Shown one piece after another: positions 1-51,155 of a DNA stretch of 60,678 nt. The stretch spans positions 1 to 60,678 of the IMG/VR virus record IMGVR_UViG_3300032897_000004; one strand, given 5' to 3'. Made by a program: the position numbers and the translations under genes. The notes beneath the pieces are model-generated. The model had not been told where the DNA came from and did no database searches. It worked only from the letters and a program-made list of their open reading frames with translations. Source of the DNA: a virus. Position 1 is the first letter of the stretch. Each line of letters begins with the position of its first letter.

Positions 1-1550
1 ATCTTCGCCAGCTGAATCTGGAAGCCCTGCCACTCCAGCTTCAGGTCCTGCGTCATCATCAGGAACTTGCCCCATCCGGCGATGTCGTTACGGTTCAACA
101 CGACGCCGGATGCCCGCGCCATCTTCGCCATCTGGGCCTTCTGCTGATTGCTCGACAGCAAATAAAGGGCAGCCTGAGACGCACCGCGACCAAAGAACTT
201 GGTAAGGTAAAGAGAGCGCTTATCCTTGGGCAAGCTAGGTAGAACGTTCAGGAGCTGAGAGACAATCTGATTAGGTGGTAGGGCTGGGTCGATACCAGCC
301 TCGATGAGCAGGCGGTCCTCGGGCTTCAGCGTCAGACCAAGATTAATCTTCTGACGAGTAATGGCGTTCAGGGCCTGCTGATGGGCTGCGCCACCAGCAA
401 TCAGCTCACCCGTGAGAGACCTGCGACGCGCGGCCTGTGCCAGGGTAAACTGTCCCCGCGCCACCTGCAGCATATAGCGCGCATTCGCCGAAGAAATGCC
501 ATACTCCTCACGAATCTTGGCGACACTCATGTTACCGCTAATGCCCTTCTCCATCAGGCCCAACATGGTGGGAATGTCCATGTAGCGCATAGCGGCACTC
601 GTCTGAGAGCTGGATGTCTTGGCGTTCATCAGAGCAACAGCGGCAAGCCGCTCTTGCAACCCCGAACGCGCTCCGGCAAGCGCCTCTCGCAGATTAGCGC
701 TCCTCCCCTTGAGTCCGAATGCCTGCTCAATCTTCTGGACCGTAAGGTTGTGGGCACTGGCCTGAATCCCCATCTGGTTGAGGATGCTGGCGATGGCCAT
801 GCTCGACTGCTGACCCTTTATGGCGCGCTGCAGGTTCGCATAGATGTCGTTGATGCTCATTGTCTTGAGCGTCAAGGCGTTGCGCTCGTTGTAAAGCTTG
901 TACGCCTCATGGGCTTCGGCGGCGTTGCGGTAGGCATACCGGAAGGCGGTCGTCATCGCCCCCGGTTCAATCTTAAGCAGCTCACCAGAAGCAAGGATAG
1001 TCGACGACTGTACCGGGCTCATGCCGGTCAGCTTCGACATCTTGGCGACCTGCATGCCCCAGTTGCCATAGGTGTTCATTGCAGTAACGCCAAGACCGAC
1101 CAGCGTGGTCATCGCCCCAATAGCGAGGTTGGCCGCGGTGTTGAGGCCACTCAGTGCCTTCGTGGCGACGCTGCCAAAAGTATGAATCCTGTGTGTCGCC
1201 TTGACTGTGGTGTCCTGATAGGACTTCATCGCCCGTTCGGCGTTGCGAAGCTCTTGCTCCTGCATCTGGATGGCCTGCTTCTCGGCCTTCAGGGTGGTCT
1301 TGCCGCCGCGGAGCGGGTTCGTCGAGCGCTTGATTGCAGAGTCAAGCTTCTCGTACTTCTCAATCATCTTGTCGAGCGTCAGCATCTGCTCGACGTAGTA
1401 TGCCTTCGCCCGCTCCGCGTCGTCCTTCTGCTGAGTTTCGACGTCCTTGATGGCAGTCTTTAGTTTGGAGAGGTCCCGCAATAGGCCATTGAAGTCGCCG
1501 CGGGCGGTATATGTAATAGCTTTGCTAAAAGTCAACCCGCCCAGAGCCAC
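1..1550 (-). CDS. Tail tape measure protein, N-terminal part (cut by window edge)
   Basis: An open frame starts at GTG 1550 and runs off the left edge, giving about 516 visible residues with no stop. The first 150 residues are mostly charged helix (KLKTAIKDVETQQKDDAERA). A glycine/alanine-rich hydrophobic stretch follows (GLNTAANLAIGAMTTLVGLG), then a region resembling tape-measure N-termini (MSKLTGMSPVQSSTIL). Tape measure proteins set tail length and are usually the longest tail gene, placed after the tail chaperones, as here. It begins 3 bases after the HNH gene stop. The GTG start has only a weak upstream purine stretch, so the exact start is less certain than the frame. Confidence 0.82.
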   Translation of the reverse strand, partial: MALGGLTFSKAITYTARGDFNGLLRDLSKLKTAIKDVETQQKDDAERAKAYYVEQMLTLDKMIEKYEKLDSAIKRSTNPLRGGKTTLKAEKQAIQMQEQELRNAERAMKSYQDTTVKATHRIHTFGSVATKALSGLNTAANLAIGAMTTLVGLGVTAMNTYGNWGMQVAKMSKLTGMSPVQSSTILASGELLKIEPGAMTTAFRYAYRNAAEAHEAYKLYNERNALTLKTMSINDIYANLQRAIKGQQSSMAIASILNQMGIQASAHNLTVQKIEQAFGLKGRSANLREALAGARSGLQERLAAVALMNAKTSSSQTSAAMRYMDIPTMLGLMEKGISGNMSVAKIREEYGISSANARYMLQVARGQFTLAQAARRRSLTGELIAGGAAHQQALNAITRQKINLGLTLKPEDRLLIEAGIDPALPPNQIVSQLLNVLPSLPKDKRSLYLTKFFGRGASQAALYLLSSNQQKAQMAKMARASGVVLNRNDIAGWGKFLMMTQDLKLEWQGFQIQLAK

Positions 1551-40270: not shown

Positions 40271-40927
40271 ATGGAGGCAGTCGGGGGTAGCCAAGCATAC
40301 GGGATGGCTACCCCCGAGTCGGATACCGACTACCACGGTGTCTTCGTGCTGCCGACGCGCCGTGTGCTGAGCATGCGGGGCTATGAGGAGACGCGGGTCT
40401 CCAAGAACCCTGACCGCTGCCTGCATGAGGTCGGTAAGTTTGTGCGGCTTGCCGCCCAGTGCAATCCGACCATCTTGGAACAGCTCTATCTCGACCAGTA
40501 CGAGTTCCTGGCCAGAGAGGGGAAGATGCTGATTGCCATCAGAAGCGCCTTTCTCTCGCAGCGCGTGCGCCAGACCTATGGCGGCTATGCCCGACAGCAA
40601 ATCGGTCGGCTGGAGCGTCGCGAGGCCGATGGCATGGTCGGCTTCGGCCCCAAGGTCGCCAAGCGCCGTGAGAAGCATGCCCGGCACTGTTTTCGCTTAA
40701 TCTGGCAAGGCGTCGACCTGCTGAAGACCGGCGAGCTGCGAGTGCGCCTTACCAAGCAAGAGGTAGCATGGCTTTTTGAGATTGGTGAGATGTCAACCGC
40801 TGAGATGCGCGAACGGTTTGACACAGAGCTTTCGTACATGGATAGCATCGCATCAGTTCTGCCCGATGAGCCGAACTACAAGGTTATTGACGAGGTCCTC
40901 TACGACATAAGGTTGATGAACCCATGA
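40271..40927 (+). CDS. RlaP-type nucleotidyltransferase (RNA repair family)
   Basis: A 218-aa protein. GGSQAYGMATPESDTDYHGV is the catalytic G-S...D-x-D motif of the polymerase-beta superfamily branch named RlaP (PF10127, 'RNA repair pathway DNA polymerase beta family'). The helical C-terminus follows (ARQQIGRLERREADG; HARHCFRLIWQGVDLLKTGE). Family members are linked by gene context to RNA ligases; here RtcB and an Rnl-type ligase lie within 8 kb. It may add a nucleotide or modify RNA ends before sealing. The start ATG 40271 has no strong SD. Confidence 0.8.
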   Translation: MEAVGGSQAYGMATPESDTDYHGVFVLPTRRVLSMRGYEETRVSKNPDRCLHEVGKFVRLAAQCNPTILEQLYLDQYEFLAREGKMLIAIRSAFLSQRVRQTYGGYARQQIGRLERREADGMVGFGPKVAKRREKHARHCFRLIWQGVDLLKTGELRVRLTKQEVAWLFEIGEMSTAEMRERFDTELSYMDSIASVLPDEPNYKVIDEVLYDIRLMNP

Positions 40928-41136
40928 GATGTGACAGCTGTGGCAAGGACAAGCCTCGTGAGGGGAATTGGTTCCACAAGACGGCCTATGGCCGTGTCTT
41001 TGATGCCTGCCCGGAGTGCTTCGTGACCGTGGTGCAGACATTGTTTGGCCCGGCTCTTGAGGCTCGCGAAAAGGAAGTGAAAGCCGAGCTTGCCCGCCAG
41101 GAGGCAGAGCAAGCCCGGCTCAAGAAGCGCCGTTAG
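40924..41136 (+). CDS. Zinc-ribbon small protein
   Basis: A 70-aa protein. CDSCGKDKPREGNW and CPEC form a zinc knuckle, followed by a charged helix (ALEAREKEVKAELARQEAEQ) and basic end. It overlaps the RlaP stop (ATGA) and so is co-translated. It converges with the cREC gene, sharing 4 bases. Confidence 0.7.
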   Translation: MRCDSCGKDKPREGNWFHKTAYGRVFDACPECFVTVVQTLFGPALEAREKEVKAELARQEAEQARLKKRR

Positions 41137-41486
41137 ACGGCAGGCAGGAAGCTCTCCAGCCCCACTCTCTGCACGTTCCACGCGGGGCCAATCTCGACGC
41201 GTAGGCGCTCGGCCCCGACGGGGTTCTGCGTGTGGATGAAGACGGTGCCGATGCGCAGGGAGCCGTCTCCCTCGCGGCCCATCTTGTCGAGCCAGCGCGC
41301 CAGTGTCAGGACCCAGAACTCCTCTTCTTTGCCCATGTCGTAGTCGAGCCACAGCTCGTTGACGGTGCCTGTGAAGTCGAGGATGAAGTCGAAGGCGTCG
41401 TGGGCGCTGCGGAAATGCAGCGCCGGGTTAGCCAGCGTACGGATATCGTCAATGACGATGCGGTCGATGGTGCCGTCGGCTAACAT
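41133..41486 (-). CDS. cREC: cyclic-phosphate-processing receiver-like protein
   Basis: A 117-aa protein. IDRIVIDDIRTLANPALHFR (acidic pair of a receiver domain), NELWLDYDMGKEEE and IGTVFIHTQNPVGAERLRVE match the cREC family (PF20274), whose hallmark is H.xNPxGxxRM near the end. Family members occur with RNA-repair genes. It lies next to RlaP. I infer a role in handling 2',3'-cyclic phosphate ends. Confidence 0.76.
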   Translation of the reverse strand: MLADGTIDRIVIDDIRTLANPALHFRSAHDAFDFILDFTGTVNELWLDYDMGKEEEFWVLTLARWLDKMGREGDGSLRIGTVFIHTQNPVGAERLRVEIGPAWNVQRVGLESFLPAV

Positions 41487-41992
41487 CCGCGACCGTTCCA
41501 GTATCCGCGGGTGACGACTGTGATGAGGTTATTGATGCAGTCGTCGCTCAGGTCGGTGAATTCGACGGGATTCAGGTTCATGGCGGCCCGCATGACGAAA
41601 GGCTCCGGCCTGGGCTTCTCTTCCTCGTAAGGAATGCCGAAACATTCGCACATCTCCGCAAGGCCCTCTTCGTCGTCATCCAGGGCAGTGTAGACGTAGC
41701 AGTTGTCCAGCGCCTCGTTCCACTCGCGGTCGGCACCGGGTGAGTGCTCGATGAGGAAGAAGGCGTCGCAGCGCTTGATGAAGGCGAAATTCGAGCCGAA
41801 GTAGTCCTCATACTCCATGCCGCCGACCATCATGCCGACGACAAAGTCAAGGGCCGGGTTGTAGACGGAGAAGCCGAGCTTGAGGAGTTTGGCGTGCCAC
41901 ACCAGGAACTGGTGGACGTTGTCGAGGTAGCCCGGCGCATCGGGGCTGTTCAGCGGCCCCGCGAGATAAACGGTCGGTCTCTCTTTGCTCAT
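41480..41992 (-). CDS. Nucleoside deoxyribosyltransferase-like protein
   Basis: A 170-aa protein from ATG 41992, overlapping the previous stop (ATGA). RPTVYLAGPLNSPDAPGYLD, then FSVYNPALDFVVGM and CDAFFLIEHSPGADREWNEA, gives the flavodoxin-like fold of NDT/DUF4406 proteins (YLAGP opening; late catalytic Glu). It may exchange bases on deoxynucleosides or act on nucleotide signals. It is coupled to a MazZ-like pyrophosphatase upstream. Confidence 0.72.
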   Translation of the reverse strand: MSKERPTVYLAGPLNSPDAPGYLDNVHQFLVWHAKLLKLGFSVYNPALDFVVGMMVGGMEYEDYFGSNFAFIKRCDAFFLIEHSPGADREWNEALDNCYVYTALDDDEEGLAEMCECFGIPYEEEKPRPEPFVMRAAMNLNPVEFTDLSDDCINNLITVVTRGYWNGRGC

Positions 41993-42462
41993 TCGTTCTC
42001 CTTTAACCACTCGAAGAGGTAGCCCTGCGTGTTGAACCAAACTGCGCAGAGTGCCTCTTTCATGTCGACAAGCCGCCAGCCGGGCTCGACGTGATAATGG
42101 GCTGTTACGTGGGTAATCTCCCTGCCGTCCTTGCGCTCTTTGTAGACGAAGAGACCGCGATGGATAGCCCACACGTCGAAGACGTGTCGCAACATGCTCT
42201 TCATGTACTGGGGCATGGGAATGCCAGCCTGCCAATTGTCTGAGTCGCGCATGGTGCCGTCAGACTGGAGACGGTGCTCTGTCATGTACTCTCCGAAGGC
42301 GCTTAGCGGCAGCGGATTCAAGAAGCCCTCGTAGTCGTGCTTTCCAGAGTCTGTGTCGCGATAGGCTCCGCCCTCGAAGTAACGACCCTCAGGCTGCTGT
42401 TCGGGCGGGTAGACGGTCTGAGCAAACTCATCGGCGGGGCACTGCATATCGTTCTTCTTCAT
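41989..42462 (-). CDS. dATP/dGTP diphosphohydrolase-like (DUF5664/MazZ type)
   Basis: A 157-aa protein from ATG 42462 behind AGGAGGCC. RDTDSGKHDYEGFLNPLPLS, FGEYMTEHRLQSDGTMRDSD and NWQAGIPMPQYMKSMLRHVF match the DUF5664 dATP/dGTP diphosphohydrolase N-terminal domain. MazZ enzymes lower dATP/dGTP pools in phages with 2-aminoadenine DNA, but the key PurZ gene is not in this window. The promoter is the minus-strand extended -10 at 42485-42490. Confidence 0.72.
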   Translation of the reverse strand: MKKNDMQCPADEFAQTVYPPEQQPEGRYFEGGAYRDTDSGKHDYEGFLNPLPLSAFGEYMTEHRLQSDGTMRDSDNWQAGIPMPQYMKSMLRHVFDVWAIHRGLFVYKERKDGREITHVTAHYHVEPGWRLVDMKEALCAVWFNTQGYLFEWLKENE

Positions 42463-42484
42463 ATGGCCTCCTTCTCGGGCTTTC

Positions 42485-42490
42485 AGTATA
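42485..42490 (-). promoter_or_regulatory. Extended -10 promoter (minus)
   Basis: The minus strand reads TGT-TATACT in the context GGGCTATGTTATACTG, 22 bases before ATG 42462. Nearly the same sequence (GGGCTGTGTTATACTG) recurs at 48901-48906, so the phage reuses this promoter type. Confidence 0.65.
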
Positions 42491-42500
42491 ACATAGCCCG

Positions 42501-42538
42501 CACGCGCCTTGACGGCGCGTGACCCCATGTTGTATCAT
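42501..42538 (+). promoter_or_regulatory. Rightward promoter with hairpin around its -35
   Basis: TTGACG (42509-42514), 18 bases, TATCAT (42533-42538). CACGCGCC-TTGAC-GGCGCGTG (42501-42521) is a perfect 8-bp inverted repeat with the -35 core in its loop. It can act as an operator for the promoter or form a hairpin in leftward reading. It drives the 22-aa peptide and the HAD genes. Confidence 0.66.
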
Positions 42539-42559
42539 GATAACGATAAGGAGGTCAAA

Positions 42560-42628
42560 ATGCGTTTACGCGTCAAGCGCCGCCGGGCCAACAAGAGGCT
42601 CTTCCGGCTGCTTATCTGGAAGAAGTAG
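42560..42628 (+). CDS. 22-aa highly basic peptide
   Basis: AAGGAGG precedes ATG 42560; the peptide begins MRLRVKRRRANKRLFRLL and ends IWKK. It holds ten Arg/Lys among 22 residues with a hydrophobic face, so it is a cationic amphipathic helix. Its stop is 2 bases before the first HAD gene. Whether it is an active peptide or a coupling leader is open. Confidence 0.55.
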   Translation: MRLRVKRRRANKRLFRLLIWKK

Positions 42629-42630
42629 AC

Positions 42631-43005
42631 ATGAAGGATTTTCTGCAAGCTAACATGCTGCCACCGACGAACCGCGGTTACGTCTGTGTGGACTTCGACC
42701 AGACCCTCGCCCAGCGGATAAAGCACGAGAGCTACGACCCCAAGGACCTGAGCGACTTCCCGCCGGTTGCGGCCATGGTGAATCGCGTCAAGGCGTGGCT
42801 CCTGTTGGGCGAGGATGTCTGCATCTTCACCTCGCGCGTCGCTCGCCCTGATGCTGACGCGCAGCGCAAGGCTATTGAACACTGGTGCGAGAAGCACATC
42901 GGCCGCGTCTTGCCCGTCACCTGTATTAAGCAGTACACCATGGTGAGGTTCTGGGACGACCGCGCCGTACAGGTCGCGCTCAACATGGGGGTGCGCCTTG
43001 GCTGA
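42631..43005 (+). CDS. HAD-type phosphatase, copy 1
   Basis: A 124-aa protein. Motif I GYVCVDFDQTLAQR (DxDxT), motif II CIFTSRVARPD, motif III Lys in TCIKQYTM, motif IV FWDDRAV. It is a capless mini-HAD, close in size to phage polynucleotide 3'-phosphatase-like proteins. It is homologous to the next gene. In this RNA-repair context a role in end-healing is plausible but unproven. Confidence 0.78.
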   Translation: MKDFLQANMLPPTNRGYVCVDFDQTLAQRIKHESYDPKDLSDFPPVAAMVNRVKAWLLLGEDVCIFTSRVARPDADAQRKAIEHWCEKHIGRVLPVTCIKQYTMVRFWDDRAVQVALNMGVRLG

Positions 43006-43405
43006 CGTTCTCGACCCCACGAGCGACTTCCTCGCTGCCAATATCCTCGACCCCGAGAAGAAGTATATCGCGGTCGACCTGGATGGCACCCTCGCTTTCT
43101 ACTTCGGCTGGAGCGACGACATCGGTGAACCGGTGCCGCTCATGTTGAACCGTGTCAAGGCATGGTTACTACAGGGCCGCCCTGTTTGCATCTTCACGGC
43201 CCGCGTCTGTCCGCCGAACCCCGACAAATTCCGCAGCATCATCAATGCGTGGTGCTGGAAGAACCTTGGGCAGGAACTGCCCATCACCTGCATCAAGCAG
43301 CACTGCATGGAAGAGTTCTGGGATGACCGCGGCATTTGCGTGCTACCCAATACCGGAACACGCTCTTGCATTGAGGACGATGAAGGTGAGGATGAGGACT
43401 CGTGA
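42998..43405 (+). CDS. HAD-type phosphatase, copy 2
   Basis: A 135-aa protein from TTG 42998 overlapping copy 1. Motif I YIAVDLDGTLAFYFG, motif II CIFTARVCPPN, motif III TCIKQHCM, motif IV FWDDRGI; the C-terminus is acidic (EDDEGEDEDS). Copy 1 has DFDQT and copy 2 has DLDGT, so both keep the catalytic Asp pair. A tandem duplication with divergence. Confidence 0.78.
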   Translation: MADVLDPTSDFLAANILDPEKKYIAVDLDGTLAFYFGWSDDIGEPVPLMLNRVKAWLLQGRPVCIFTARVCPPNPDKFRSIINAWCWKNLGQELPITCIKQHCMEEFWDDRGICVLPNTGTRSCIEDDEGEDEDS

Positions 43406-43650
43406 GTATCTTCGACAAACCTACCGGAGCCTGTTGCCGCTGCGGCCTCTTCCCTGACGCCGAGGACCACTTTGACGACCCCCTGCACCCCTTCATCGAG
43501 CAGCTGCAGAAGGCACAGTTCTTCACCCTCAATGGTCAAAGATTGATGATTTGCTCCAGTTGCGACGAATGGGTCCGCATTACCTACGGACCCATCCTGT
43601 TCCCTGGTAAGCCAGCGGGCAACCGCTGGCAGCGTCGTCACGCGAGGTGA
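43402..43650 (+). CDS. Small zinc-finger protein
   Basis: An 82-aa protein from GTG 43402 (overlap with HAD copy 2). CCRCG and CSSCDEWVRI form a zinc site with a His/Asp-rich spacer; the end is basic. It converges with another Cys4 protein at 43638. Confidence 0.65.
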   Translation: MSIFDKPTGACCRCGLFPDAEDHFDDPLHPFIEQLQKAQFFTLNGQRLMICSSCDEWVRITYGPILFPGKPAGNRWQRRHAR

Positions 43651-43823
43651 GCGCGGTCCTTGAGGAAGCAGCGCCAGCAGAGGTCTAACATGGCGTTGCC
43701 ACGTTTGACCTGAGCGACCAGCACCTGCTTCGAGCCGCACCTACTGCAGCAGTGAAAGAGCGGACTGCGCACCGTCATGGTGTAGGTCCGCTTCTTCGTC
43801 TCCAGACTTAGCTTGAACTTCAT
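43638..43823 (-). CDS. Small Cys4 zinc protein
   Basis: A 61-aa protein. CCSRCG and CWRCF form a Cys4 knuckle after a basic N-terminus (MKFKLSLETKKRTYTMTV). It overlaps its convergent neighbour by 13 bases and the upstream gene by 4 bases. Confidence 0.65.
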   Translation of the reverse strand: MKFKLSLETKKRTYTMTVRSPLFHCCSRCGSKQVLVAQVKRGNAMLDLCWRCFLKDRAHLA

Positions 43824-44251
43824 ACTCCCTCCAGTGATTCGATGATGCCGTTGTCGTCAACGACGACGTTCGCCTCGGTGGTCAACTCGAAGAGCGGATT
43901 CCCCTCCTCGTCTGTGGCCCAGAAATTGTCGTAGGCCGATGTACCCTCGGTGTAGTGGTAGAGGCTCGGGAAGAGGTCTTCGAGGGCGCGGTCGATGTAC
44001 TCGCGCCAGCCGTGCTGGTGATGAAGCTGTCGCATGGCAGCATGGACCGTGTTCGGGTCACGCAGGTGCAACACGGCATCGACATAGCCCCGCATGTAGT
44101 TACGGTCAACGCCCCAGCGCGGCAGCTCGGTCCCTTCGATGACGTAACGCCGGAAGCGCAGGATGAAGTTAGCGGAGCGCTTCGTCCAATCCTGCGACTG
44201 CAGGTGTGCGCGCCGCTGCGGCGGCGCAAGGTATTCGTCAAGTTCTCCCAT
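43820..44251 (-). CDS. Unknown 143-aa protein
   Basis: A 143-aa protein with a helical N-terminal half (WTKRSANFILRFRRYVIEGT; NYMRGYVDAVLHLRDPNTVH) and an acidic, Asn-rich end. It lies 7 bases after RtcB in the same operon, so it could act with it. No family is recognised. Confidence 0.58.
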   Translation of the reverse strand: MGELDEYLAPPQRRAHLQSQDWTKRSANFILRFRRYVIEGTELPRWGVDRNYMRGYVDAVLHLRDPNTVHAAMRQLHHQHGWREYIDRALEDLFPSLYHYTEGTSAYDNFWATDEEGNPLFELTTEANVVVDDNGIIESLEGV

Positions 44252-44258
44252 GGCTCTC

Positions 44259-45419
44259 CTATGCCTTGATGACAGCGAGCGGACGCAGCTTCATCTGCGG
44301 CGTGACGAGGTCGCTTTCGGCGGCAATCACAACGTCAATGTCTTTGTACGCCTGCCTGCATTCCTCGGCAACATCGCCTTTCTTCGGCTTGAACAGCTCG
44401 ATGCCAGAGTTGTCCATTTCCTTGATGACGTCTTCCATCTTGATGGCCTTGAGAGCCGCCTTGCGGCCCATGGCGCGGCCAGCACCATGCGAGCAACTCT
44501 GGTACGAATCGGGATTGCCCAGGCCCTTGGCAAGGTAAGAGGCAGAGCCCATGCTGCCGGGGATAATGACCATTTCCCCAGCCCGTGCCCGCACCGCGCC
44601 CTTGCGATGCACGACGAGGTTGTAGCCGCCGTGATTCTCAAGCGCCGCGTAGTTGTGGTGGATATCGAAGCTTCGGCCAAAGCCAATGCCGTAGTTGAGC
44701 AGCACGTCCTCAATGTGCGACATCATGTGCGTCCGGTTGGCCCTTGCGAACTGCAAACAAAGGCCCATCTCTTCCCAGTACGCTTGGCCCTCGTTTGTGT
44801 CCATCGGCAAGAAGGCCAACTCCCAGCTCTTCGGCACCGAGGAGAACCAGCGCTCATTCAGTTCAATGGCCAGCTTATTGTAGTGACTAGCTACCTTCAG
44901 ACCGATGTTGCGGCTACCGGAGTGCAGCATGAAGCACAGGCCACCGACATCGTCAACCTGAGCCTCGATGAAGTGGTTGCCGCCGCCCAGCGTGCCAACC
45001 TGGAAGAGGCTGCTCTCGTACTCGCGTTCGACGATGCTGTACATCGGTATCACGGAACCGTTCGACCAGTCCTCCTGCTCGATGCGGTGGTGATTGAAGC
45101 CGGTCGGGATGAGCCGCGTGATGTCGTGCATGATGTCGTGCACGGGTGCATCTGCCGCGAGGGTGTCGGTCGACAGGAAGGTCATCCCGCAGCCGATGTC
45201 CACGCCGACGGCGTTCGGCACGACGACGTTCTGGCAGGCCAGGACGCCGCCAATCGGCATGCCGTATCCCATGTGGGCGTCGGGCATCAGGGCCACAGAC
45301 TTGAAGGCGAACGGCAGGTTTGCGAGGTTGCGCGCCTGCTCGGCGCACTTCGGCTCCAGCTCTTCGGCAACCCAGCTCTTGATGGGCCGCTCCTGTCCTT
45401 CTTCCCAGATAACCTTCAC
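44259..45419 (-). CDS. rtcB: RtcB-type RNA ligase
   Basis: A 386-aa protein. The RtcB set is complete: ALMPDAHMGYGMPIGGVLAC, VGVDIGCGMTFLST (metal Asp/Cys), TLGGGNHFIEAQVD, LHSGSRNIG, SCSHGAGRAMGRKAAL (guanylylated His) and the end LRPLAVIKA. It joins 2',3'-cyclic phosphate or 3'-phosphate ends to 5'-OH ends with GTP. It is shorter than many bacterial RtcBs (about 400-480 aa) but keeps all motifs. It is coupled to a phosphoesterase by ATGA. Confidence 0.93.
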   Translation of the reverse strand: MKVIWEEGQERPIKSWVAEELEPKCAEQARNLANLPFAFKSVALMPDAHMGYGMPIGGVLACQNVVVPNAVGVDIGCGMTFLSTDTLAADAPVHDIMHDITRLIPTGFNHHRIEQEDWSNGSVIPMYSIVEREYESSLFQVGTLGGGNHFIEAQVDDVGGLCFMLHSGSRNIGLKVASHYNKLAIELNERWFSSVPKSWELAFLPMDTNEGQAYWEEMGLCLQFARANRTHMMSHIEDVLLNYGIGFGRSFDIHHNYAALENHGGYNLVVHRKGAVRARAGEMVIIPGSMGSASYLAKGLGNPDSYQSCSHGAGRAMGRKAALKAIKMEDVIKEMDNSGIELFKPKKGDVAEECRQAYKDIDVVIAAESDLVTPQMKLRPLAVIKA

Positions 45420-46132
45420 TTTGCATCCCTTGAGTCGTATACTGTGACCTTGCCATGGTCAATGATGGCGTAGCGATAGCGGTCGGTCTTCATGTCAACG
45501 CCACGGGCGTAGGGGTCAACCATGTGCAGGTTCGGGAACCGCTTCGCATGCCAGGGCATCGGCGGCGTGTGGCCGCAGACTTGCTCGATGTCGATGGGCT
45601 CAAGCAACTCGGGGCGATACCAAAGCGGTCCATGCTCATAGGCGCTGACGAAGCGATGCGGGCCGCTTGTCTGGGAGTAGACAAGGTCCCCCGCGGTCTG
45701 CGTGTAGAAGTCCTCATTCAACTCGTCGACCAGTTCGTCTACGTCTCCCCCGGGGTCCTCCGCCATCGGCAGCTTGCTGAGGTAGATTTTCGACACCCCG
45801 GCATGCGTTATCAGGATGCCGTCGCGCGCCACGGCGAGGTGCCACTGGCGATGAGCGAACTGGTCCATCAAGAAGCCGCGCCAAGTCCAGCTCTCGGGGT
45901 CCTGGGGCCAGATGGTCATGCCAATGAGGATGGCATGCTCATGGTTGCCCCAGAGAATGACAGCGCCCTCCTCTTCGAGGATGGCCAGACACTTCTCCGG
46001 TTCGTCACCGATGTCGAGCAAGTCCCCGGCGAAGACGACCTCGTCGTAGCCACCGTTCTCCTGAGCATGGCTCAGGGCGTTCTCGATGAGCGCCGGAGTG
46101 CCGTGGGCATCGGCGAGGACGAGAGTTCTCAT
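45416..46132 (-). CDS. Calcineurin-like phosphoesterase
   Basis: A 238-aa protein. VLADAHGTPALIENAL, VVFAGDLLDIGDEPEKCLAI, ILWGNHEHAIL, LITHAGVSK and VCGHTPPMPW are the five metal-binding motifs of PPP/PrpE-type phosphoesterases. It overlaps RtcB by 4 bases, so the two are co-translated. A role in RNA-end healing is inferred from the coupling; dinucleoside tetraphosphates are another possible substrate. Confidence 0.84.
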   Translation of the reverse strand: MRTLVLADAHGTPALIENALSHAQENGGYDEVVFAGDLLDIGDEPEKCLAILEEEGAVILWGNHEHAILIGMTIWPQDPESWTWRGFLMDQFAHRQWHLAVARDGILITHAGVSKIYLSKLPMAEDPGGDVDELVDELNEDFYTQTAGDLVYSQTSGPHRFVSAYEHGPLWYRPELLEPIDIEQVCGHTPPMPWHAKRFPNLHMVDPYARGVDMKTDRYRYAIIDHGKVTVYDSRDAK

Positions 46133-46146
46133 GTCTCTCCAAGCAT
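46129..46146 (-). promoter_or_regulatory. Leader minigene before the phosphoesterase-RtcB operon
   Basis: AGGAGGTAAAAC is followed by ATG 46146 and MLGET-stop, whose stop overlaps the phosphoesterase ATG (ATGA). The strongest SD of the operon thus serves this 5-codon frame. Coupled reinitiation may set RtcB dose. Confidence 0.48.
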
Positions 46147-46171
46147 GTTTTACCTCCTGGTTGTCACTGGT

Positions 46172-46201
46172 ATTATAGTTCCCAGCGGGCCGTTAGGTCA
46201 A
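46172..46201 (-). promoter_or_regulatory. Promoter of the phosphoesterase-RtcB operon
   Basis: The minus strand has TTGACC (46196-46201), 18 bases, TATAAT (46172-46177). Its -35 stands back to back with the -35 of the rightward promoter (46206), with only 4 bases between. Confidence 0.75.
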
Positions 46202-46205
46202 GCAC

Positions 46206-46234
46206 TTGACACGTCCGTCGCGAAGGTCTAGACT
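46206..46234 (+). promoter_or_regulatory. Promoter of the HicA-like unit
   Basis: TTGACA (46206-46211), 17 bases, TAGACT (46229-46234). The start codon at 46261 follows a GAGGAGGAGAC SD. Divergent from the RtcB operon promoter; one polymerase may exclude the other. Confidence 0.74.
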
Positions 46235-46260
46235 GCTTGCAGGAGACCAGAGGAGGAGAC

Positions 46261-46464
46261 ATGGCAACCAGTGCAGTGCCGAAGGAACTAAAGTCAATGG
46301 TCAAGGAAGCCCAGGATAATGGCTGGGAACTAAGCGGCGGCGGTCGACGCCACTTCAAGCTCTCGAAGGGCGGCACCATCATCGTGATGGCGTCCTCGGG
46401 CAGCGATTGGCGCGGCGTGCATCAGACCCGTGCCCGCCTGCGACGAGTGGGAGCTATCCGGTGA
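46261..46464 (+). CDS. HicA-like small protein
   Basis: A 67-aa protein from ATG 46261 (SD GAGGAGGAGAC). VKEAQDNGWELSGGGRRHFK then LSKGGTIIVMASSGSDWRGV has the double-stranded RNA-binding-like fold and catalytic-type His of HicA mRNA interferases. No HicB antitoxin-like gene is next to it. It may be a tamed HicA-like RNA-binding protein. Confidence 0.66.
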   Translation: MATSAVPKELKSMVKEAQDNGWELSGGGRRHFKLSKGGTIIVMASSGSDWRGVHQTRARLRRVGAIR

Positions 46465-46646
46465 ACACAGTCTACGCGCCGATGCGCAAGCATCGTGGTC
46501 CACATGAGGTATGGCACATCGTCGTCTCTGGGACGACGGCCTGTGGCCTGCGCGTCCGTAAGAACAATTGGCGGCAGCTCAAGAAGCCCGAGAAGAACAT
46601 CTGCGAAGCATGCAAGCTGGCGGACAACTCATGGAAGGCAAAATGA
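46461..46646 (+). CDS. Small zinc-binding protein
   Basis: A 61-aa protein from GTG 46461 (GTGA overlap). HEVWHIVVSGTTACGLRVRK and ICEACKLADNSW give His/Cys ligands of a small treble-clef-like module common in phage hypotheticals. Function is unknown. Confidence 0.6.
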   Translation: MNTVYAPMRKHRGPHEVWHIVVSGTTACGLRVRKNNWRQLKKPEKNICEACKLADNSWKAK

Positions 46647-46822
46647 AACAGCCGAACGAAGAGCAGAAGCTGAAGGTCTGTCCGGTCAATCACTGGTCGA
46701 GGTGCCCCGCTATGGTGCACTCCGTGGAGCAGCCCTGCAGGGGCTGCCAGGGTTGTTGGCTCGACAAGCTCATCCTGCAGTGCAGCAAGGAAGCGGCAGA
46801 ACGGGCGCGGGGCGATGAGTAA
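46643..46822 (+). CDS. Small Cys-rich protein
   Basis: A 59-aa protein from ATG 46643 (ATGA overlap, GGAAGG upstream). CPVNHWSRCPAMVHSVEQPC then RGCQGCWLDK has six Cys and two His residues. Probably a zinc protein. ATG 46631 is an alternative start. Confidence 0.6.
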   Translation: MKQPNEEQKLKVCPVNHWSRCPAMVHSVEQPCRGCQGCWLDKLILQCSKEAAERARGDE

Positions 46823-47225
46823 ACCCGTCAGGAAGCGTTACCGCTGGTACATCAACTATGACGGCACGTACAAGAGCCGCTATGGCAATTGGTACGGTCA
46901 TGGCATGGGAGACCTTCCCGAGCTGCCGTCCGAACCTCTCCTTTGTAGCTGGGGCTGGCACTTCATGACGACGGCCGATGGCGTGCTGGAGCATGCTCCT
47001 CGTAGTTGCTTCGGCAGGATGGAACTCTGGGAAGTCGAACTCTACGGCAGCGGCAAGACAACGCGGGCTCTGTATGGAAAGGCCGCAACGACCCGTGGCG
47101 TGCGCCATGTCAAGCTCGTTTACTCCTCGCCTGTATCGCTGAGCTATGGTAAATTGATGAAGGCTCTGGAGGAGAACGGAACAAAGGTATACGCGAGCGA
47201 CAGGTCGCACTACTCGGATTATTAG
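46815..47225 (+). CDS. Unknown 136-aa protein (DUF7666-like features)
   Basis: A 136-aa protein. LCSWGWHFMTTADGVLEHAP, ELWEVELYGSGKTTRALYGK and RHVKLVYSS recall phage proteins with a 'GFHxC...DVL...EVEA.G' pattern (DUF7666). It ends before a hairpin that separates it from the RNA ligase. Confidence 0.6.
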   Translation: MSKPVRKRYRWYINYDGTYKSRYGNWYGHGMGDLPELPSEPLLCSWGWHFMTTADGVLEHAPRSCFGRMELWEVELYGSGKTTRALYGKAATTRGVRHVKLVYSSPVSLSYGKLMKALEENGTKVYASDRSHYSDY

Positions 47226-47232
47226 ACCTTTA

Positions 47233-47267
47233 GGGGGTCTGCCCGGATAGGAGACAGGCAGGCCCCC
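47233..47267. terminator. Hairpin between convergent genes
   Basis: GGGGG-TCTGCC and GGCAGG-CCCCC form an 11-bp stem with one mismatch. It lies in the 48-base gap between the convergent 136-aa and RNA ligase genes. A T-tract is weak on both sides, so termination strength is uncertain. Confidence 0.6.
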
Positions 47268-47273
47268 CAAACT

Positions 47274-48179
47274 TCACTCGAAGGACTGCGCGGCCAGCTG
47301 TTGCTTGTACCACTCGGGCAGACCGGCGGTGGCCTTCCGCAGGATTTCCTTGTGGAAGTTCTTCCACATCCATTCCATGATGTCCTGCTGCTCCTCCGCG
47401 ATAAGGTCCTCGTTCACGGTCCTCATGAGCGCGCCGATATCGCGAGGCGAGCCCTCCAGTAGGCCCTCATCACGGAGGTGCTGGACCGCCTTCTGCCAGC
47501 GCGCCTCGGTGCGGAAGCTCTCGACGAAGTCCTCCCAGTGACCCTTGCTGGTGTGCTCCTTCTTCCAGCTATCGCGGTGGACTTCCTTGAACTTCTCGGA
47601 CACCAGCTTGCCGCACATGATAGGCATGGGGTGGCCCTGCTCGCCACCAAGCATCCAGGGTGTGTAGCGCTTGCAGACGACGCCCTCAATCTTTGGACCG
47701 CCGAGATAGCTCTCCCGGTCAAAGAATGCGGTGAGCTGTTCCATCGAGTCCACCATGCCCTCATAGAGCCGCGGTACGACGTCGATGCCGAGGAACTTGG
47801 CCTCGTCGCAGAGGGTGGGGTAGTCGAAGAACCTCTCGTAGGCCGAACAGCCGAAGAGCGCGAGATGGTTGGTCGGCACGCGGTCATACTTTAGCGCGTT
47901 GTGCTTCGGCTTTTTGAGGTACTCGCAGTAGTAGACGACGTTAGGCGCGAGTAGGCCGCGATGAAAGAGGTCGAGAGCATGCTCAGCGCCCTCCTTGAAC
48001 ATCGTATCAATAGCGCCCTCGAACATCTCCTTGCCCTTCGAGCGCATGTGCAGGGTGCCATCAATGAGACCGAAGACGAACTGTGAGCCGTCGACCTTCT
48101 CGGTGACCTCGACGGGCTCTTTGAACAGGTCCTTGATATAGCCCTGACCAATGGTGAAGATTTTGGGGAAGGCGTGCAT
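47274..48179 (-). CDS. Rnl2-like RNA ligase
   Basis: A 301-aa protein. Motif I VTEKVDGSQFVFG (AMP-accepting Lys), motif III VVYYCEYLKKPK, motif IV KIEGVVCKRY, motif V CGKLVSEKFKEVHRDSWKK. This is the T4 Rnl2/RNA_ligase family order; a helical C-terminal domain follows (MEWMWKNFHKEILRKATAGL). It seals 5'-phosphate/3'-OH nicks in RNA, complementing RtcB, which joins the opposite polarity. Confidence 0.88.
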   Translation of the reverse strand: MHAFPKIFTIGQGYIKDLFKEPVEVTEKVDGSQFVFGLIDGTLHMRSKGKEMFEGAIDTMFKEGAEHALDLFHRGLLAPNVVYYCEYLKKPKHNALKYDRVPTNHLALFGCSAYERFFDYPTLCDEAKFLGIDVVPRLYEGMVDSMEQLTAFFDRESYLGGPKIEGVVCKRYTPWMLGGEQGHPMPIMCGKLVSEKFKEVHRDSWKKEHTSKGHWEDFVESFRTEARWQKAVQHLRDEGLLEGSPRDIGALMRTVNEDLIAEEQQDIMEWMWKNFHKEILRKATAGLPEWYKQQLAAQSFE

Positions 48180-48331
48180 CAGTGCTTGTGCAAAATCCAG
48201 ACGCTAATGAGAGCGACGAGTAGCCCAAACACCCAAAGCGCGATGTAACCGACGAAGCAGATACACACAATCCAGATAAGGATTGTGAGCGCATGGACAA
48301 GGCCCGGGCTCATGGCGATAAGTGACATCAT
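48179..48331 (-). CDS. 50-aa membrane protein
   Basis: A 50-aa protein from ATG 48331 overlapping the previous stop. One or two hydrophobic stretches (LVHALTILIWIVCICFVGYI; FGLLVALISVWILHKH) make up almost the whole chain. It sits between a deoxyribosyltransferase-like gene and the RNA ligase. Function is unknown. Confidence 0.62.
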   Translation of the reverse strand: MMSLIAMSPGLVHALTILIWIVCICFVGYIALWVFGLLVALISVWILHKH

Positions 48332-48681
48332 CTTTGTCCAACCTCCTTCAGGTACTCGACCGTCATGGGATAGCTCATCTCGCGATAGCCGATGCAAGAT
48401 GGCAGCTCGATAACGGGAATGTCAAGCGACTGTGCGATGCGAATCTCCGTATAGACGCCACTGGGAATGTTGCCCGACTCCGGTAGGGCGCGGAAGGCGA
48501 AGACCTCGCACTGGGTGACCAGGGCATGGGCATAGTCCATACCAAGCGTCTCCCAGTTGTGCTCGTGCTCCGGGGCGTTTGGGTTCAGCACCTCGAAGCC
48601 GAGAGACTCCAGCAGCGCGATGTCGCGCGCCTCCTGGGGCGTGTTGTACAGGGCCATGCAGTGGGCGTAGTAACACTTCAT
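48328..48681 (-). CDS. Nucleoside deoxyribosyltransferase-like protein 2
   Basis: A 117-aa protein from ATG 48681. YYAHCMALYNTPQEARDIAL, LGFEVLNPN, CEVFAFRALPESGNIPSGVY then TEIRIAQSLDIPVIEL shows the NDT-like flavodoxin fold, with the nucleophile-type Glu in YTEI. It is a shorter relative of the gene at 41480. It may act on nucleotides. Confidence 0.7.
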   Translation of the reverse strand: MKCYYAHCMALYNTPQEARDIALLESLGFEVLNPNAPEHEHNWETLGMDYAHALVTQCEVFAFRALPESGNIPSGVYTEIRIAQSLDIPVIELPSCIGYREMSYPMTVEYLKEVGQR

Positions 48682-48683
48682 GT

Positions 48684-48893
48684 TCACTCCGCTGGTAGTA
48701 GGTAGTCCAGTACCTCGGGCCAGTGTCCTGCGTCCGCGAAGTACTTCTCTCGCATGCGCCAAATCAGGTCCCAATCGACCGGGGCGCGGGTCTTCAGGTG
48801 CGTTTGCCATGTCATGTTCTGAGCGCCCCAGCGCATACACCGCGCAGCGGGGTGGCACCAGTCCTGAAAGCAATCGCTCCAAACTAATCTCAT
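48684..48893 (-). CDS. Small protein, possibly leaderless
   Basis: A 69-aa protein (WSDCFQDWCHPAARCMRWGA; DWDLIWRMREKYFADAGHWP). The ATG at 48893 is only 7 bases past the -10 at 48901-48906, so the mRNA would be leaderless. An internal ATG is an alternative. No family is recognised. Confidence 0.55.
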   Translation of the reverse strand: MRLVWSDCFQDWCHPAARCMRWGAQNMTWQTHLKTRAPVDWDLIWRMREKYFADAGHWPEVLDYLLPAE

Positions 48894-48900
48894 CCTTCGC

Positions 48901-48906
48901 AGTATA
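48901..48906 (-). promoter_or_regulatory. Extended -10 promoter (minus) with no leader
   Basis: The minus strand reads TGT-TATACT in GGGCTGTGTTATACTG, the same pattern as 42485-42490. The start codon follows after GCGAAGG, near the expected transcription start. Confidence 0.6.
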
Positions 48907-48959
48907 ACACAGCCCGCCCGCGGTGTGATAACATGATGTCAGGCAACCAAGGAGATGCT

Positions 48960-49289
48960 ATGGCAGAAGCCCCCTTCGAACCCAATTCCTACGAGATGTG
49001 GTCCATCGTCGTCGATGACTTGGTCAGCAACATCTTGCAGCTGGCCCCCGGCTTCGACCCCGACGATATCAAGGACGACAACGACCTGAAGTGCCGCCTG
49101 CTTTCGAACCTCGTCGTCGTGCTCGCCCTGCGCTTCCGGGCCAACGAGCTGGAGGGCTGGGTGCGTGAGGCGAGCGGCGTCTCCGGGGAAGATATCGACC
49201 AGTTTCTGGCCGACATCGAGCAGGAGGGCCAGCGCGCCTTCGCCGAGTGGCAGCTTGAGCAGCGAGAGCAGGATGAGTCTGCCGAGTGA
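48960..49289 (+). CDS. Acidic helical protein, unknown
   Basis: A 109-aa protein from ATG 48960 after AAGGAG. It is acidic and helical (NSYEMWSIVVDDLVSNILQL; EDIDQFLADIEQEGQRAFAE). It opens a rightward run of small genes. No family is recognised. Confidence 0.65.
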   Translation: MAEAPFEPNSYEMWSIVVDDLVSNILQLAPGFDPDDIKDDNDLKCRLLSNLVVVLALRFRANELEGWVREASGVSGEDIDQFLADIEQEGQRAFAEWQLEQREQDESAE

Positions 49290-49359
49290 GATTATCATCG
49301 TCTGCTGCGCGACCATCGCGTTTCTTATCCTTGCGTTTCTGAAAGCAGTGAGGCACTGA
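49273..49359 (+). CDS. 28-aa single-pass membrane peptide
   Basis: ATG 49273 starts MSLPSEIIIVCCATIAFLIL, followed by AFLKAVRH. A single transmembrane helix with a short basic C-terminus. It overlaps the previous gene by 17 bases and stops 1 base before the next ATG. It looks like a phage micro-membrane protein. Confidence 0.5.
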   Translation: MSLPSEIIIVCCATIAFLILAFLKAVRH

Positions 49360-49360
49360 C

Positions 49361-49567
49361 ATGGCTGAGACCGACGCCCGCAAGCAAATCTTGAACTACA
49401 TGGACATGCTCTGTGGTGAGATGCCCGATTCTAACTGCGAGAAGGGCTGCCCCCTTGCCGAGATGAAAAAGCAGGCCGGTAACGAGAACTGCCCGCTCGG
49501 CATTTGCGCCTTCCTTTTCACCGAGTATACTAAGCTGAAGGCACAGATTGACAGCCTGATGAACTGA
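49361..49567 (+). CDS. Small Cys-rich protein
   Basis: A 68-aa protein. Cys residues (MLCGEMPDSNCEKGCPLAEM; NCPLGICAF) suggest a metal site or Fe-S-like cluster; the C-terminus is helical. Function is unknown. Confidence 0.65.
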   Translation: MAETDARKQILNYMDMLCGEMPDSNCEKGCPLAEMKKQAGNENCPLGICAFLFTEYTKLKAQIDSLMN

Positions 49568-49570
49568 GGC

Positions 49571-49840
49571 ATGATGCACTGGAACTACCGCATAGCGAAG
49601 CGTTTACACGGGAATGATGTATATTATACCATCGTCGAAGCATATTATGAGAACGACGAGGTTGACATGTACAGTGACGACTCGACCCCACTCGGCATCT
49701 ATGGCGAGGACCCCGAGGAGGTCGTCCGCGTGCTGGAGATGATGTTGGCGGACGCCGTCAAGGGTCCTGTCCTTGACCTCGACGAATTCGACGCGCAGCA
49801 TCCCCGTGACATCGAGGAGTCCGAAGAAGATGGCGATTGA
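49571..49840 (+). CDS. Small acidic protein, unknown
   Basis: An 89-aa protein (NYRIAKRLHGNDVYYTIVEA; EDPEEVVRVLEMMLADAVKG). The pattern 'NYR...YTIVE.YY...GE...VV..L..ML.D' is common among phage hypotheticals. Acidic tail EESEEDGD. It overlaps the next gene by 11 bases. Confidence 0.62.
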   Translation: MMHWNYRIAKRLHGNDVYYTIVEAYYENDEVDMYSDDSTPLGIYGEDPEEVVRVLEMMLADAVKGPVLDLDEFDAQHPRDIEESEEDGD

Positions 49841-50030
49841 CATCAACGCAATCTATGACCAGCTCGAATCCCACAAGTACGTTGACACGACCTTCGATGA
49901 AGAGTGCTACGAAGCACTGGCCGTCGATGACATGATTTCCTACCTCGTCAATGAGGTGCGTACCATCAATCGCCGCTATGAGGACCTGTTCATCGCCTAC
50001 TCCGAACTGCTGGAGGCCCGACAAAAGTGA
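49830..50030 (+). CDS. Small helical protein, unknown
   Basis: A 66-aa protein from ATG 49830 preceded by CCGAAGA. Acidic helices (INAIYDQLESHKYVDTTFDE; VRTINRRYEDLFIAYSELLE). It is coupled to the phosphoesterase gene by GTGA. Function is unknown. Confidence 0.62.
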   Translation: MAIDINAIYDQLESHKYVDTTFDEECYEALAVDDMISYLVNEVRTINRRYEDLFIAYSELLEARQK

Positions 50031-50542
50031 TTTACTTCACGAGCGACCTGCACATGGGTCATGAGAACATCATCAAATACTGCAACCGGCCCTTCCGCGA
50101 TGCGAACGAGATGGACAGAGTGCTCATCGAGAACATCTGCCAGACCGTCGGACCGAGCGACACGCTCTACGTGCTGGGCGACTTCTGCTTCGACCCGCGA
50201 CGCTTCGAGGCGTGGAACTGCTACCTGCAGGTCTTCATCGAGGACATCATCTACGTCAAAGGAAACCACGACCCCAAGGCCCGCCAGGACCCGCTGGCGC
50301 TCAGCCTGAAGTACAACAAGCACCGCTACTACCTCTGCCACTATCCCTGGGCCTCATGGAGGCCGCGGACCATCATGCTCCATGGACACTGCCATGGTCA
50401 TGCGCCCGACCCGAACCGCGACCCGCGGCAGCAGAACCGCTTCGACGTGGGTGTCGACTGCTGGGACTTCAGGCCGGTGAGCATCGACGAAATCGAGGCT
50501 CGCTGCATCTGGCCACCCCGCCAGGAGCGCGAGCGGGAGTGA
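50027..50542 (+). CDS. Calcineurin-like phosphoesterase 2
   Basis: A 171-aa protein from GTG 50027. YFTSDLHMGHENIIKYCNRP, VLGDFCFDPR, YVKGNHDPKARQ, YLCHYPWASW and MLHGHCHGHAPDPN match the small YfcE/COG4186-type phosphoesterases of phages. It may be a nuclease or phosphatase for RNA ends in this context, but substrate cannot be read from sequence. Confidence 0.84.
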   Translation: MIYFTSDLHMGHENIIKYCNRPFRDANEMDRVLIENICQTVGPSDTLYVLGDFCFDPRRFEAWNCYLQVFIEDIIYVKGNHDPKARQDPLALSLKYNKHRYYLCHYPWASWRPRTIMLHGHCHGHAPDPNRDPRQQNRFDVGVDCWDFRPVSIDEIEARCIWPPRQERERE

Positions 50543-50745
50543 AGCCGTTCTGTCACAGATGCGGTAGGTTCCTCGACGATGTCAAAGTGGAGGAGAGCCA
50601 ACTCCGGGGCGAGTCTCGCACATGCCCGGACTGCCAGTACAGGTCGTTCTCTGGGTTTGACCGCTCGTTTATCCGGCGTGGAACGCTGTGTAATGGGATG
50701 CCTGTCCCAGTCCCCGTTAGCAAGCCCTGGGAAGAGTGCCTCTAG
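50539..50745 (+). CDS. Zinc-ribbon protein with KPW-type tail
   Basis: A 68-aa protein from GTG 50539 (GTGA overlap). CHRCG...CPDCQYRSF forms a zinc ribbon. The C-terminus KPWEECL recurs in three other small proteins (53490-53699, 53701-53886, 54513-54599), which otherwise share nothing. Confidence 0.68.
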   Translation: MKPFCHRCGRFLDDVKVEESQLRGESRTCPDCQYRSFSGFDRSFIRRGTLCNGMPVPVPVSKPWEECL

Positions 50746-51155
50746 ACCTCGGTGAGGAACTCTAGCCAGCGTGTGCCGCGCTCCCCGTTGTCGAGATAGG
50801 CGAGGGAGTCCAACTCGACGACGACGGTGGGCAAGCCCATACGATGGGCCTCCCGTATCATGTCGCGCGTGCCGCGCGACCGCCTGCAGGCCAAGGCCAA
50901 GCAATGGGTGCCGTAGTGTGCCATCTCAATGTTGCGCTGGTGACCGGCGGCCTTATGGAAACGATGCCAGTCGGCCGGGAAGTGCTTGACCGGACACTTC
51001 TCCGTGGCCCAGAGCGCCCCGAGGGTATCCACCCCCGGGGCGTCGCCGCTGACCACCTCATCGGGCATGCCGTAGCGCTCCACGTAGGCGTCGATGATAG
51101 CAAAGACGACGCCGAGCTGGGTGAACAGGTGGTCGCCGCAGATGATGAGCTTCAC
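50742..51155 (-). CDS. SLOG-family (DUF2493/YspA-like) protein
   Basis: A 137-aa protein. KLIICGDHLFT, DEVVSGDAPGVDTLGALWAT (the G-x-A-x-G-x-D nucleotide-binding loop) and TRDMIREAHRMGLPTVVVEL define the small SLOG fold. Such proteins bind nucleotide-type ligands and often occur in phages. It converges with the zinc-ribbon gene. Confidence 0.78.
   Translation of the reverse strand: MKLIICGDHLFTQLGVVFAIIDAYVERYGMPDEVVSGDAPGVDTLGALWATEKCPVKHFPADWHRFHKAAGHQRNIEMAHYGTHCLALACRRSRGTRDMIREAHRMGLPTVVVELDSLAYLDNGERGTRWLEFLTEV

What the first reader, a model, noticed from the sequence alone, without database searches (positions are those of the whole stretch)
40271..50542. Dense phage RNA-repair arsenal: RlaP, cREC, two HADs, RtcB, two phosphoesterases and an Rnl2-like ligase
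Seen: motif-complete RtcB, Rnl2-like ligase, RlaP nucleotidyltransferase, cREC receiver-like protein, two mini-HAD phosphatases and two calcineurin-like phosphoesterases within about 10 kb, in several small operons. Known: these families recur in RNA-repair gene neighbourhoods; RtcB and Rnl ligases seal opposite end chemistries. Inference: the phage carries a full healing and sealing kit against tRNA- or rRNA-cleaving host defences. Having both ligase polarities plus RlaP and cREC in one phage looks unusually complete.
Basis: partly seen in the sequence, partly recalled or inferred. Interest (0 to 1): 0.88.

Follow-up and report, generated by a model that had tools for sequence, protein, structure and literature searches.

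The report
Phage RNA-repair gene cluster
A fragment of a bacterial virus genome carries, within about 8 kb, two RNA-joining enzymes and two helper proteins that probably mend host RNAs cut by the bacterium's defences; such kits are already described in phages, so this is a good but not unprecedented example.

Summary
Four of the named genes are confirmed well above family cut-offs: RtcB, an Rnl2-type (PF09414) ligase, RlaP and cREC. They span 7.9 kb; chance placement gives a span this tight with P about 0.009. Catalytic residues are intact in both ligases. The two HADs and two calcineurin-like phosphoesterases exist, but their assignment to RNA repair is weak: inspected relatives of HAD1 lie mostly among phage DNA-replication genes, one phosphoesterase type is found in 1,270 phage records, and the other resembles PPP/Ap4A phosphatases. 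"Full healing and sealing kit" is overstated: I found no 5'-OH kinase and no CCA-adding enzyme, although the contig is incomplete. The grouping itself is real. In otherwise dissimilar viruses these genes are among the best conserved ones shared with this contig, and occur as adjacent pairs: RlaP-RtcB, RtcB-Rnl2, Rnl2-RlaP-CCA enzyme, RtcB-cREC. One 94-kb relative has all four. Dual-ligase phages, RlaP and cREC were described by Iyer et al. 2021 (PMC7824862), so the combination is a new member of a known kind. Most likely it is an exchangeable RNA-end repair set that counters RNA-cleaving defences; this function is inferred, not shown.

The parts
40271..40927 (+). RlaP family Pol-beta nucleotidyltransferase (first ATG in frame; only about 5 residues precede the GS motif, so the true start may be slightly upstream at a non-standard codon)
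   Evidence: PF10127 E 2.6e-20, phrog_388 E 7.1e-40; GS...SDxD motifs invariant in relatives; start region read
40924..41136 (+). small Cys-rich protein overlapping the RlaP stop, unknown
   Evidence: ORF list; no Pfam hit above cut-off
41133..41486 (-). cREC, cyclic-phosphate-processing receiver-like domain
   Evidence: PF20274 44.8 bits, E 2e-11; DD, LDxDxG and H(S/T)xNPVG motifs shared with cREC of G005
41480..41992 (-). DUF4406 / nucleoside 2-deoxyribosyltransferase-like protein, overlapping the cREC start (same operon)
   Evidence: PF14359 27.7 bits over cut-off 22; phrog_355
41989..42462 (-). first gene of the cREC operon, unknown
   Evidence: gene call; no Pfam hit above cut-off
42631..43005 (+). 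mini-HAD phosphatase 1
   Evidence: HAD motifs in sequence; PF25109 HAD_PNKP 20.0 bits, below cut-off; relatives in 16 phage records, the inspected ones mostly among DNA-replication genes
42998..43405 (+). mini-HAD phosphatase 2 (tandem neighbour of HAD1)
   Evidence: HAD motifs in sequence; phrog_1238 E 3.5e-5 only
43820..44251 (-). unknown protein directly downstream of RtcB
   Evidence: gene call; no Pfam hit
44259..45419 (-). RtcB RNA ligase (3'-P or 2',3'-cyclic phosphate to 5'-OH)
   Evidence: PF01139 E 1.2e-104; catalytic residues conserved; only RtcB of the contig
45416..46132 (-). calcineurin-like phosphoesterase 1, PPP/Ap4A-hydrolase-like, overlapping the RtcB start by 4 bp
   Evidence: PF00149 E 1.4e-12; nearest PDB sequence is a diadenosine tetraphosphatase, E 0.003
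47274..48179 (-). Rnl2-type ATP-dependent RNA ligase
   Evidence: PF09414 E 7.2e-11; AlphaFold model of mean pLDDT 91; best Foldseek PDB match T4 RNA ligase 2, 2hvr, E 3.3e-8
48328..48681 (-). second nucleoside 2-deoxyribosyltransferase-like protein, first gene of the ligase operon
   Evidence: phrog_355 E 0.0021 with the longer ORF; PF14359 13.6 bits, below cut-off
50027..50542 (+). calcineurin-like phosphoesterase 2, a common phage type
   Evidence: PF00149 E 1.3e-6, phrog_547 E 2.4e-47; matches in 1,270 phage records

Best explanation
The stretch 40.3-48.2 kb is an RNA-end repair set that this phage and others exchange piecemeal, used to rejoin host (or phage) tRNAs or other translation RNAs cut by host defence RNases. 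Proposed work sharing: RtcB seals breaks left by metal-independent RNases (2',3'-cyclic phosphate or 3'-P plus 5'-OH); the Rnl2-type ligase seals 3'-OH/5'-P breaks; RlaP puts back nucleotides lost at the break; cREC opens cyclic phosphates at RNA ends or in nucleotide signals. Shown here: family membership, intact ligase catalytic residues, clustering, and recurrent adjacency of these genes in otherwise dissimilar viruses. Inferred: the RNA substrate, the counter-defence role, and any cooperation. The HADs and phosphoesterases are optional members at best.
For: Pfam, motif and fold evidence. Relatives G004, G005, G006, G045 and G086 share few other detectable proteins with the window, yet RtcB, Rnl2 and RlaP there are 36-64% identical to the window's. 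Adjacent pairs: RlaP-RtcB with about 50 bp between them (G006) and about 35 bp (L070, L071); RtcB-Rnl2 about 0.4 kb apart (G045); Rnl2-RlaP-CCA-adding enzyme (G004); RtcB-cREC 79 bp apart (L136; L137 has the same match positions). Of 16 RlaP lineages (clustered at 80% identity), 14 have a Pnkp-type kinase, CCA enzyme, RtcB or ligase within 10 kb; against 43 Rnl2 lineages, Fisher P is 4e-5 for Pnkp and 8e-6 for CCA. One of the other two, L004, has a PF09414 ligase in the same record about 7 kb from its RlaP. CCA enzyme and Pnkp identified by Pfam. The same families are described as the RNA-repair repertoire of jumbo phages.
Against: No kinase or CCA enzyme found in the contig. Genes lie in several short operons on both strands rather than one. 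Most Rnl2 relatives have no other repair gene detected within 10 kb. cREC activity has never been shown; PMC9503650 calls it experimentally uncharacterised. No tRNA gene in the window.
Confidence: 0.62

Rival explanations
1. A hot spot of unrelated accessory genes: the stretch collects small cargo genes of many kinds, and the repair genes are there because all cargo lands there, not because they work together.
For: Short operons on both strands interleaved with unknown ORFs; most Rnl2 relatives stand alone; phosphoesterase 2 and HAD1 are not repair-specific.
Against: The same gene pairs recur next to each other in viruses that share little else with the window, and RlaP has strong repair-gene neighbours.
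Confidence: 0.22
2. cREC, the two deoxyribosyltransferase-like proteins and the YAcAr SLOG protein form a separate module that destroys or senses NAD+/ADP-ribose or cyclic nucleotide signals of host immunity; only RtcB, RlaP and the ligase act on RNA.
For: cREC shares an overlapping operon with a DUF4406 protein; YAcAr SLOG at 50742-51155 (PF10686, E 1.4e-11); the literature links cREC and SLOG to NAD+/ADPr systems.
Against: cREC lies 79 bp behind RtcB in L136; the second deoxyribosyltransferase-like protein is only a marginal match and sits in the ligase operon. This rival overlaps with the best explanation (it differs only for cREC), so the confidences are not exclusive.
Confidence: 0.3
3. 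The ligases process the phage's own RNAs (maturation or intron splicing) and have nothing to do with defence.
For: RtcB and Rnl-type ligases do act in splicing elsewhere (own knowledge).
Against: No tRNA gene was found in the window; introns were not searched for; neighbours in relatives are end-healing and CCA-adding enzymes.
Confidence: 0.08

Closest known systems
RNA-repair systems of jumbo phages (Iyer, Burroughs, Aravind and colleagues 2021, PMC7824862)
   Same: RtcB plus ATP-grasp RNA ligases, RlaP, cREC and HAD phosphatases; [quoted passage not shown]
   Different: Here on a 60.7-kb incomplete contig, four families within 7.9 kb; no kinase, 2H or CCA enzyme seen
V5/Mydo-type phage neighbourhood: sirtuin, T4-like tRNA ligase, cREC, nucleotide kinase, MazG, sometimes a calcineurin-like phosphoesterase (PMC9503650)
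   Same: cREC near an RNA ligase and a calcineurin-like phosphoesterase
   Different: No sirtuin or MazG identified here among the proteins scanned; RtcB is present and the ligase is Rnl2-type
T4 Pnkp-Rnl anticodon repair (own knowledge) and RlaP-Pnkp-ligase-CCA clusters of viral contigs L073-L075 and L077
   Same: RlaP and a PF09414 ligase (viral contigs); an Rnl-type ligase (T4)
   Different: Those clusters carry a Pnkp-type kinase-phosphatase and a CCA enzyme; the window has neither
RtcB2-PrfH ribosome rescue operon (PMC9223846)
   Same: An RtcB ligase assigned to counter RNA damage
   Different: No PrfH-like GGQ release-factor motif in the window proteins or near 80 related bacterial RtcBs

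Membership tests
RtcB ligase | PF01139 over cut-off and conserved Cys/His/Asp/Asn metal and guanylylation residues | tested here: met
   351 bits against cut-off 27; D74, C77, N148, H149, H166, H255, H311 conserved
RtcB ligase | GTP- and Mn-dependent sealing of 3'-P/cyclic-P to 5'-OH | not testable with these tools
   needs biochemistry
Rnl2-type RNA ligase | PF09414 over cut-off and nucleotidyltransferase motifs I, III, IV, V | tested here: met
   43.0 bits against cut-off 27; K28, D30, G31, E86, E165, G166, K170, K191 invariant in 31 sequences
Rnl2-type RNA ligase | Rnl2-like fold with a helical C-terminal domain, closer to Rnl2 than to other RNA ligase families | tested here: inconclusive
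   pLDDT 91 model with all-helical residues 195-298; top PDB match T4 Rnl2, but Naegleria RNA ligase and Trl1 are almost as close (TM about 0.5), so the exact subfamily is open
RlaP | PF10127 over cut-off with GS and DxD motifs | tested here: met
   73.6 bits against cut-off 23; motifs
RlaP | association with RNA ligases or repair genes | tested here: met
   14 of 16 lineages with a repair gene within 10 kb
cREC | PF20274 over cut-off with receiver-like acidic residues | tested here: met
   44.8 bits against cut-off 27; motifs
cREC | hydrolysis of cyclic phosphates | not testable with these tools
   predicted in the literature only
Complete Pnkp-Rnl healing and sealing pathway | 5'-OH polynucleotide kinase encoded | tested here: not met
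   no kinase among the window proteins scanned; tblastn with a phage Pnkp found none; the contig is incomplete
PNKP-type HAD 3'-phosphatase (mini-HADs) | PF25109 over cut-off | tested here: not met
   HAD1 20.0 bits against cut-off 27.6; HAD2 no hit

The most novel reading that the evidence does not exclude
The phage couples RNA repair to nucleotide-signal metabolism: each of two operons pairs a deoxyribosyltransferase-like protein with a repair protein (one with cREC, one with the Rnl2-type ligase), so that damage-derived cyclic nucleotides or NAD+ derivatives are processed together with RNA-end sealing.
Probability: 0.1. Interest if true: 0.6.

Novelty: new member of a known kind. Interest (0 to 1): 0.38.

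Why it matters
It shows that the RNA-repair combination described in jumbo phages also occurs, compactly, on a 60-kb contig of a phage of unknown full size, and that its genes travel between dissimilar viruses as adjacent pairs. The pairs RtcB-cREC and RlaP-CCA enzyme give direct, testable hints about the substrates of the uncharacterised cREC and RlaP proteins.

Tried and rejected
RtcB2-PrfH type rescue: no GGQ release-factor motif in the window proteins or near 80 bacterial RtcB relatives. Phosphoesterase 1 structure: single-sequence model of pLDDT 36, not used; no relative found in viral contigs and one partial match in phages, so a link to Pnkp-type phosphatases could not be tested. cREC in named phages by tblastn: none, probably too divergent for that method. 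cREC in 91 records that hold Rnl2, RlaP or RtcB relatives: only G005; the tool warns for the second set that silence is not absence. HicA-like reading of the ORF at 46237-46464: no Pfam hit. Burroughs and Aravind 2016 on RNA repair was not held, so its gene neighbourhoods could not be compared.
Full report
What is there. The window is one whole IMG/VR virus record of 60,678 bases, classed linear. It is a fragment: the first gene, a 516-residue ORF, runs into the left end. It carries a DnaB helicase, a primase-like protein, an AAA ATPase and an NlpC/P60 protein, and has no tRNA gene. The eight ORFs of the finding are at the stated places. RtcB, the PF09414 RNA ligase, RlaP and cREC pass their Pfam cut-offs clearly, as do the two Metallophos proteins; HAD1 is below the cut-off of HAD_PNKP and HAD2 has no Pfam hit.

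Catalytic integrity. The short RtcB (386 residues) keeps the Asp, Cys, Asn and His residues of the RtcB active site, judged from the alignment with 1uc2 and from invariance in six viral RtcBs. The ligase keeps motifs I, III, IV and V in all 31 sequences aligned. Its model is good (pLDDT 91), and its best solved relatives are T4 RNA ligase 2, the Naegleria nick-sealing RNA ligase and Trl1; the TM-scores are about 0.5, so I call it Rnl2-type without claiming the exact subfamily. RlaP has the GS and SDxD motifs; its first ATG leaves a short N-terminus. The cREC motifs match a second phage cREC.

Layout. Six short operons can be read from overlaps: RlaP with a Cys-rich protein (+); an unknown protein, a DUF4406 protein and cREC (-); HAD1, HAD2 and a small protein (+); phosphoesterase 1, RtcB and two unknown proteins (-); a deoxyribosyltransferase-like protein, a small hydrophobic protein and the ligase (-); and small proteins with phosphoesterase 2 (+). 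The four specific genes are closer together than randomly placed genes (P 0.009), a modest signal by itself.

Relatives. The stronger evidence comes from other viruses. Scans of IMG/VR gave 53 loci with the ligase, 38 with RlaP and 7 with RtcB. G005 (IMGVR_UViG_3300025864_000012, 94 kb) has RlaP, cREC, RtcB and the ligase within about 25 kb. G009 (L071) has RlaP next to RtcB and a PF09414 ligase about 8 kb away. G086 has RtcB, the ligase and a PF10127 fragment. Elsewhere pairs lie side by side: RlaP-RtcB in G006, RtcB-ligase in G045 and ligase-RlaP-CCA enzyme in G004, RtcB-cREC in L136 and, by match positions, L137. Few other window proteins have relatives in G004, G005, G006, G045 and G086, so the repair genes appear to have moved rather than been inherited with the genome. 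RlaP is the gene with the clearest neighbours: of 16 lineages, 8 have a Pnkp-type kinase-phosphatase and 9 a CCA-adding enzyme within 10 kb, against 1 and 1 of 43 ligase lineages. Many of these contigs are near-duplicates, so the counts after clustering at 80% and 60% are the ones to trust. RtcB lies within 10 kb of 6 of 53 ligase loci, while 659 of 50,697 phage records hold an RtcB match; the two collections differ, so this is only indicative.

What is weaker than claimed. Relatives of HAD1 in BcepSaruman and in a Mesorhizobium phage lie among DNA-replication genes, and in a Rhizobium phage near ParB-like and terminase genes. Phosphoesterase 2 matches 1,270 phage records. Phosphoesterase 1 overlaps the RtcB start, which suggests a link, but its nearest solved relative by sequence is an Ap4A phosphatase and I found almost no relatives. 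No kinase was found, although not every small ORF of the window was scanned against Pfam. Without a kinase the ligase cannot seal 5'-OH ends alone, so the two ligases probably serve different breaks, or the missing part of the genome or the host supplies the kinase.

What is known. Iyer et al. 2021 (PMC7824862) describe RtcB, Rnl1, Rnl2, RlaP, cREC and HAD phosphatases as the RNA-repair repertoire of jumbo phages, with any combination of ligases in one phage, and predict the roles used here. PMC9503650 places cREC beside ligases and NAD+/ADPr enzymes and states that it is experimentally uncharacterised. The finding is therefore a compact new member of a known kind. The most useful additions are the adjacent pairs, above all RtcB-cREC and RlaP-CCA enzyme.

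Noticed in passing
L003, L005, L006, L068, L072-L077; G004, G005 and G006: RlaP is followed, in several cases directly, by a CCA-adding enzyme (PolyA_pol, RNA-binding and HD domains in G006), 9 of 16 RlaP lineages within 10 kb; this points to tRNA as the RlaP substrate.
   Followed up: partly
L136:6795-8303 and L137 (same match positions): RtcB and cREC genes 79 bp apart on one strand in other viral contigs.
   Followed up: partly
window 50742-51155 (-): YAcAr-family SLOG protein (PF10686, E 1.4e-11) just beyond phosphoesterase 2.
   Followed up: no
window 41480-41992 (-) and 48328-48681 (-): Two deoxyribosyltransferase-like proteins (the first a DUF4406 member, the second marginal), one in the cREC operon and one in the ligase operon.
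   Followed up: partly
window 3-1550 (-): First gene runs into the left end of the contig, so the phage genome is incomplete.
   Followed up: no
L072:10642-11580 and L073:8935-9885: A conserved protein of about 315 residues without Pfam assignment lies near RlaP in several viral contigs (L072-L075, L077).
   Followed up: no
L133:7992-8366: cREC gene a few kb from genes that read like thymidylate synthase and dihydrofolate reductase in a 164-kb virus record, without RtcB nearby or a PF09414 ligase detected.
   Followed up: no
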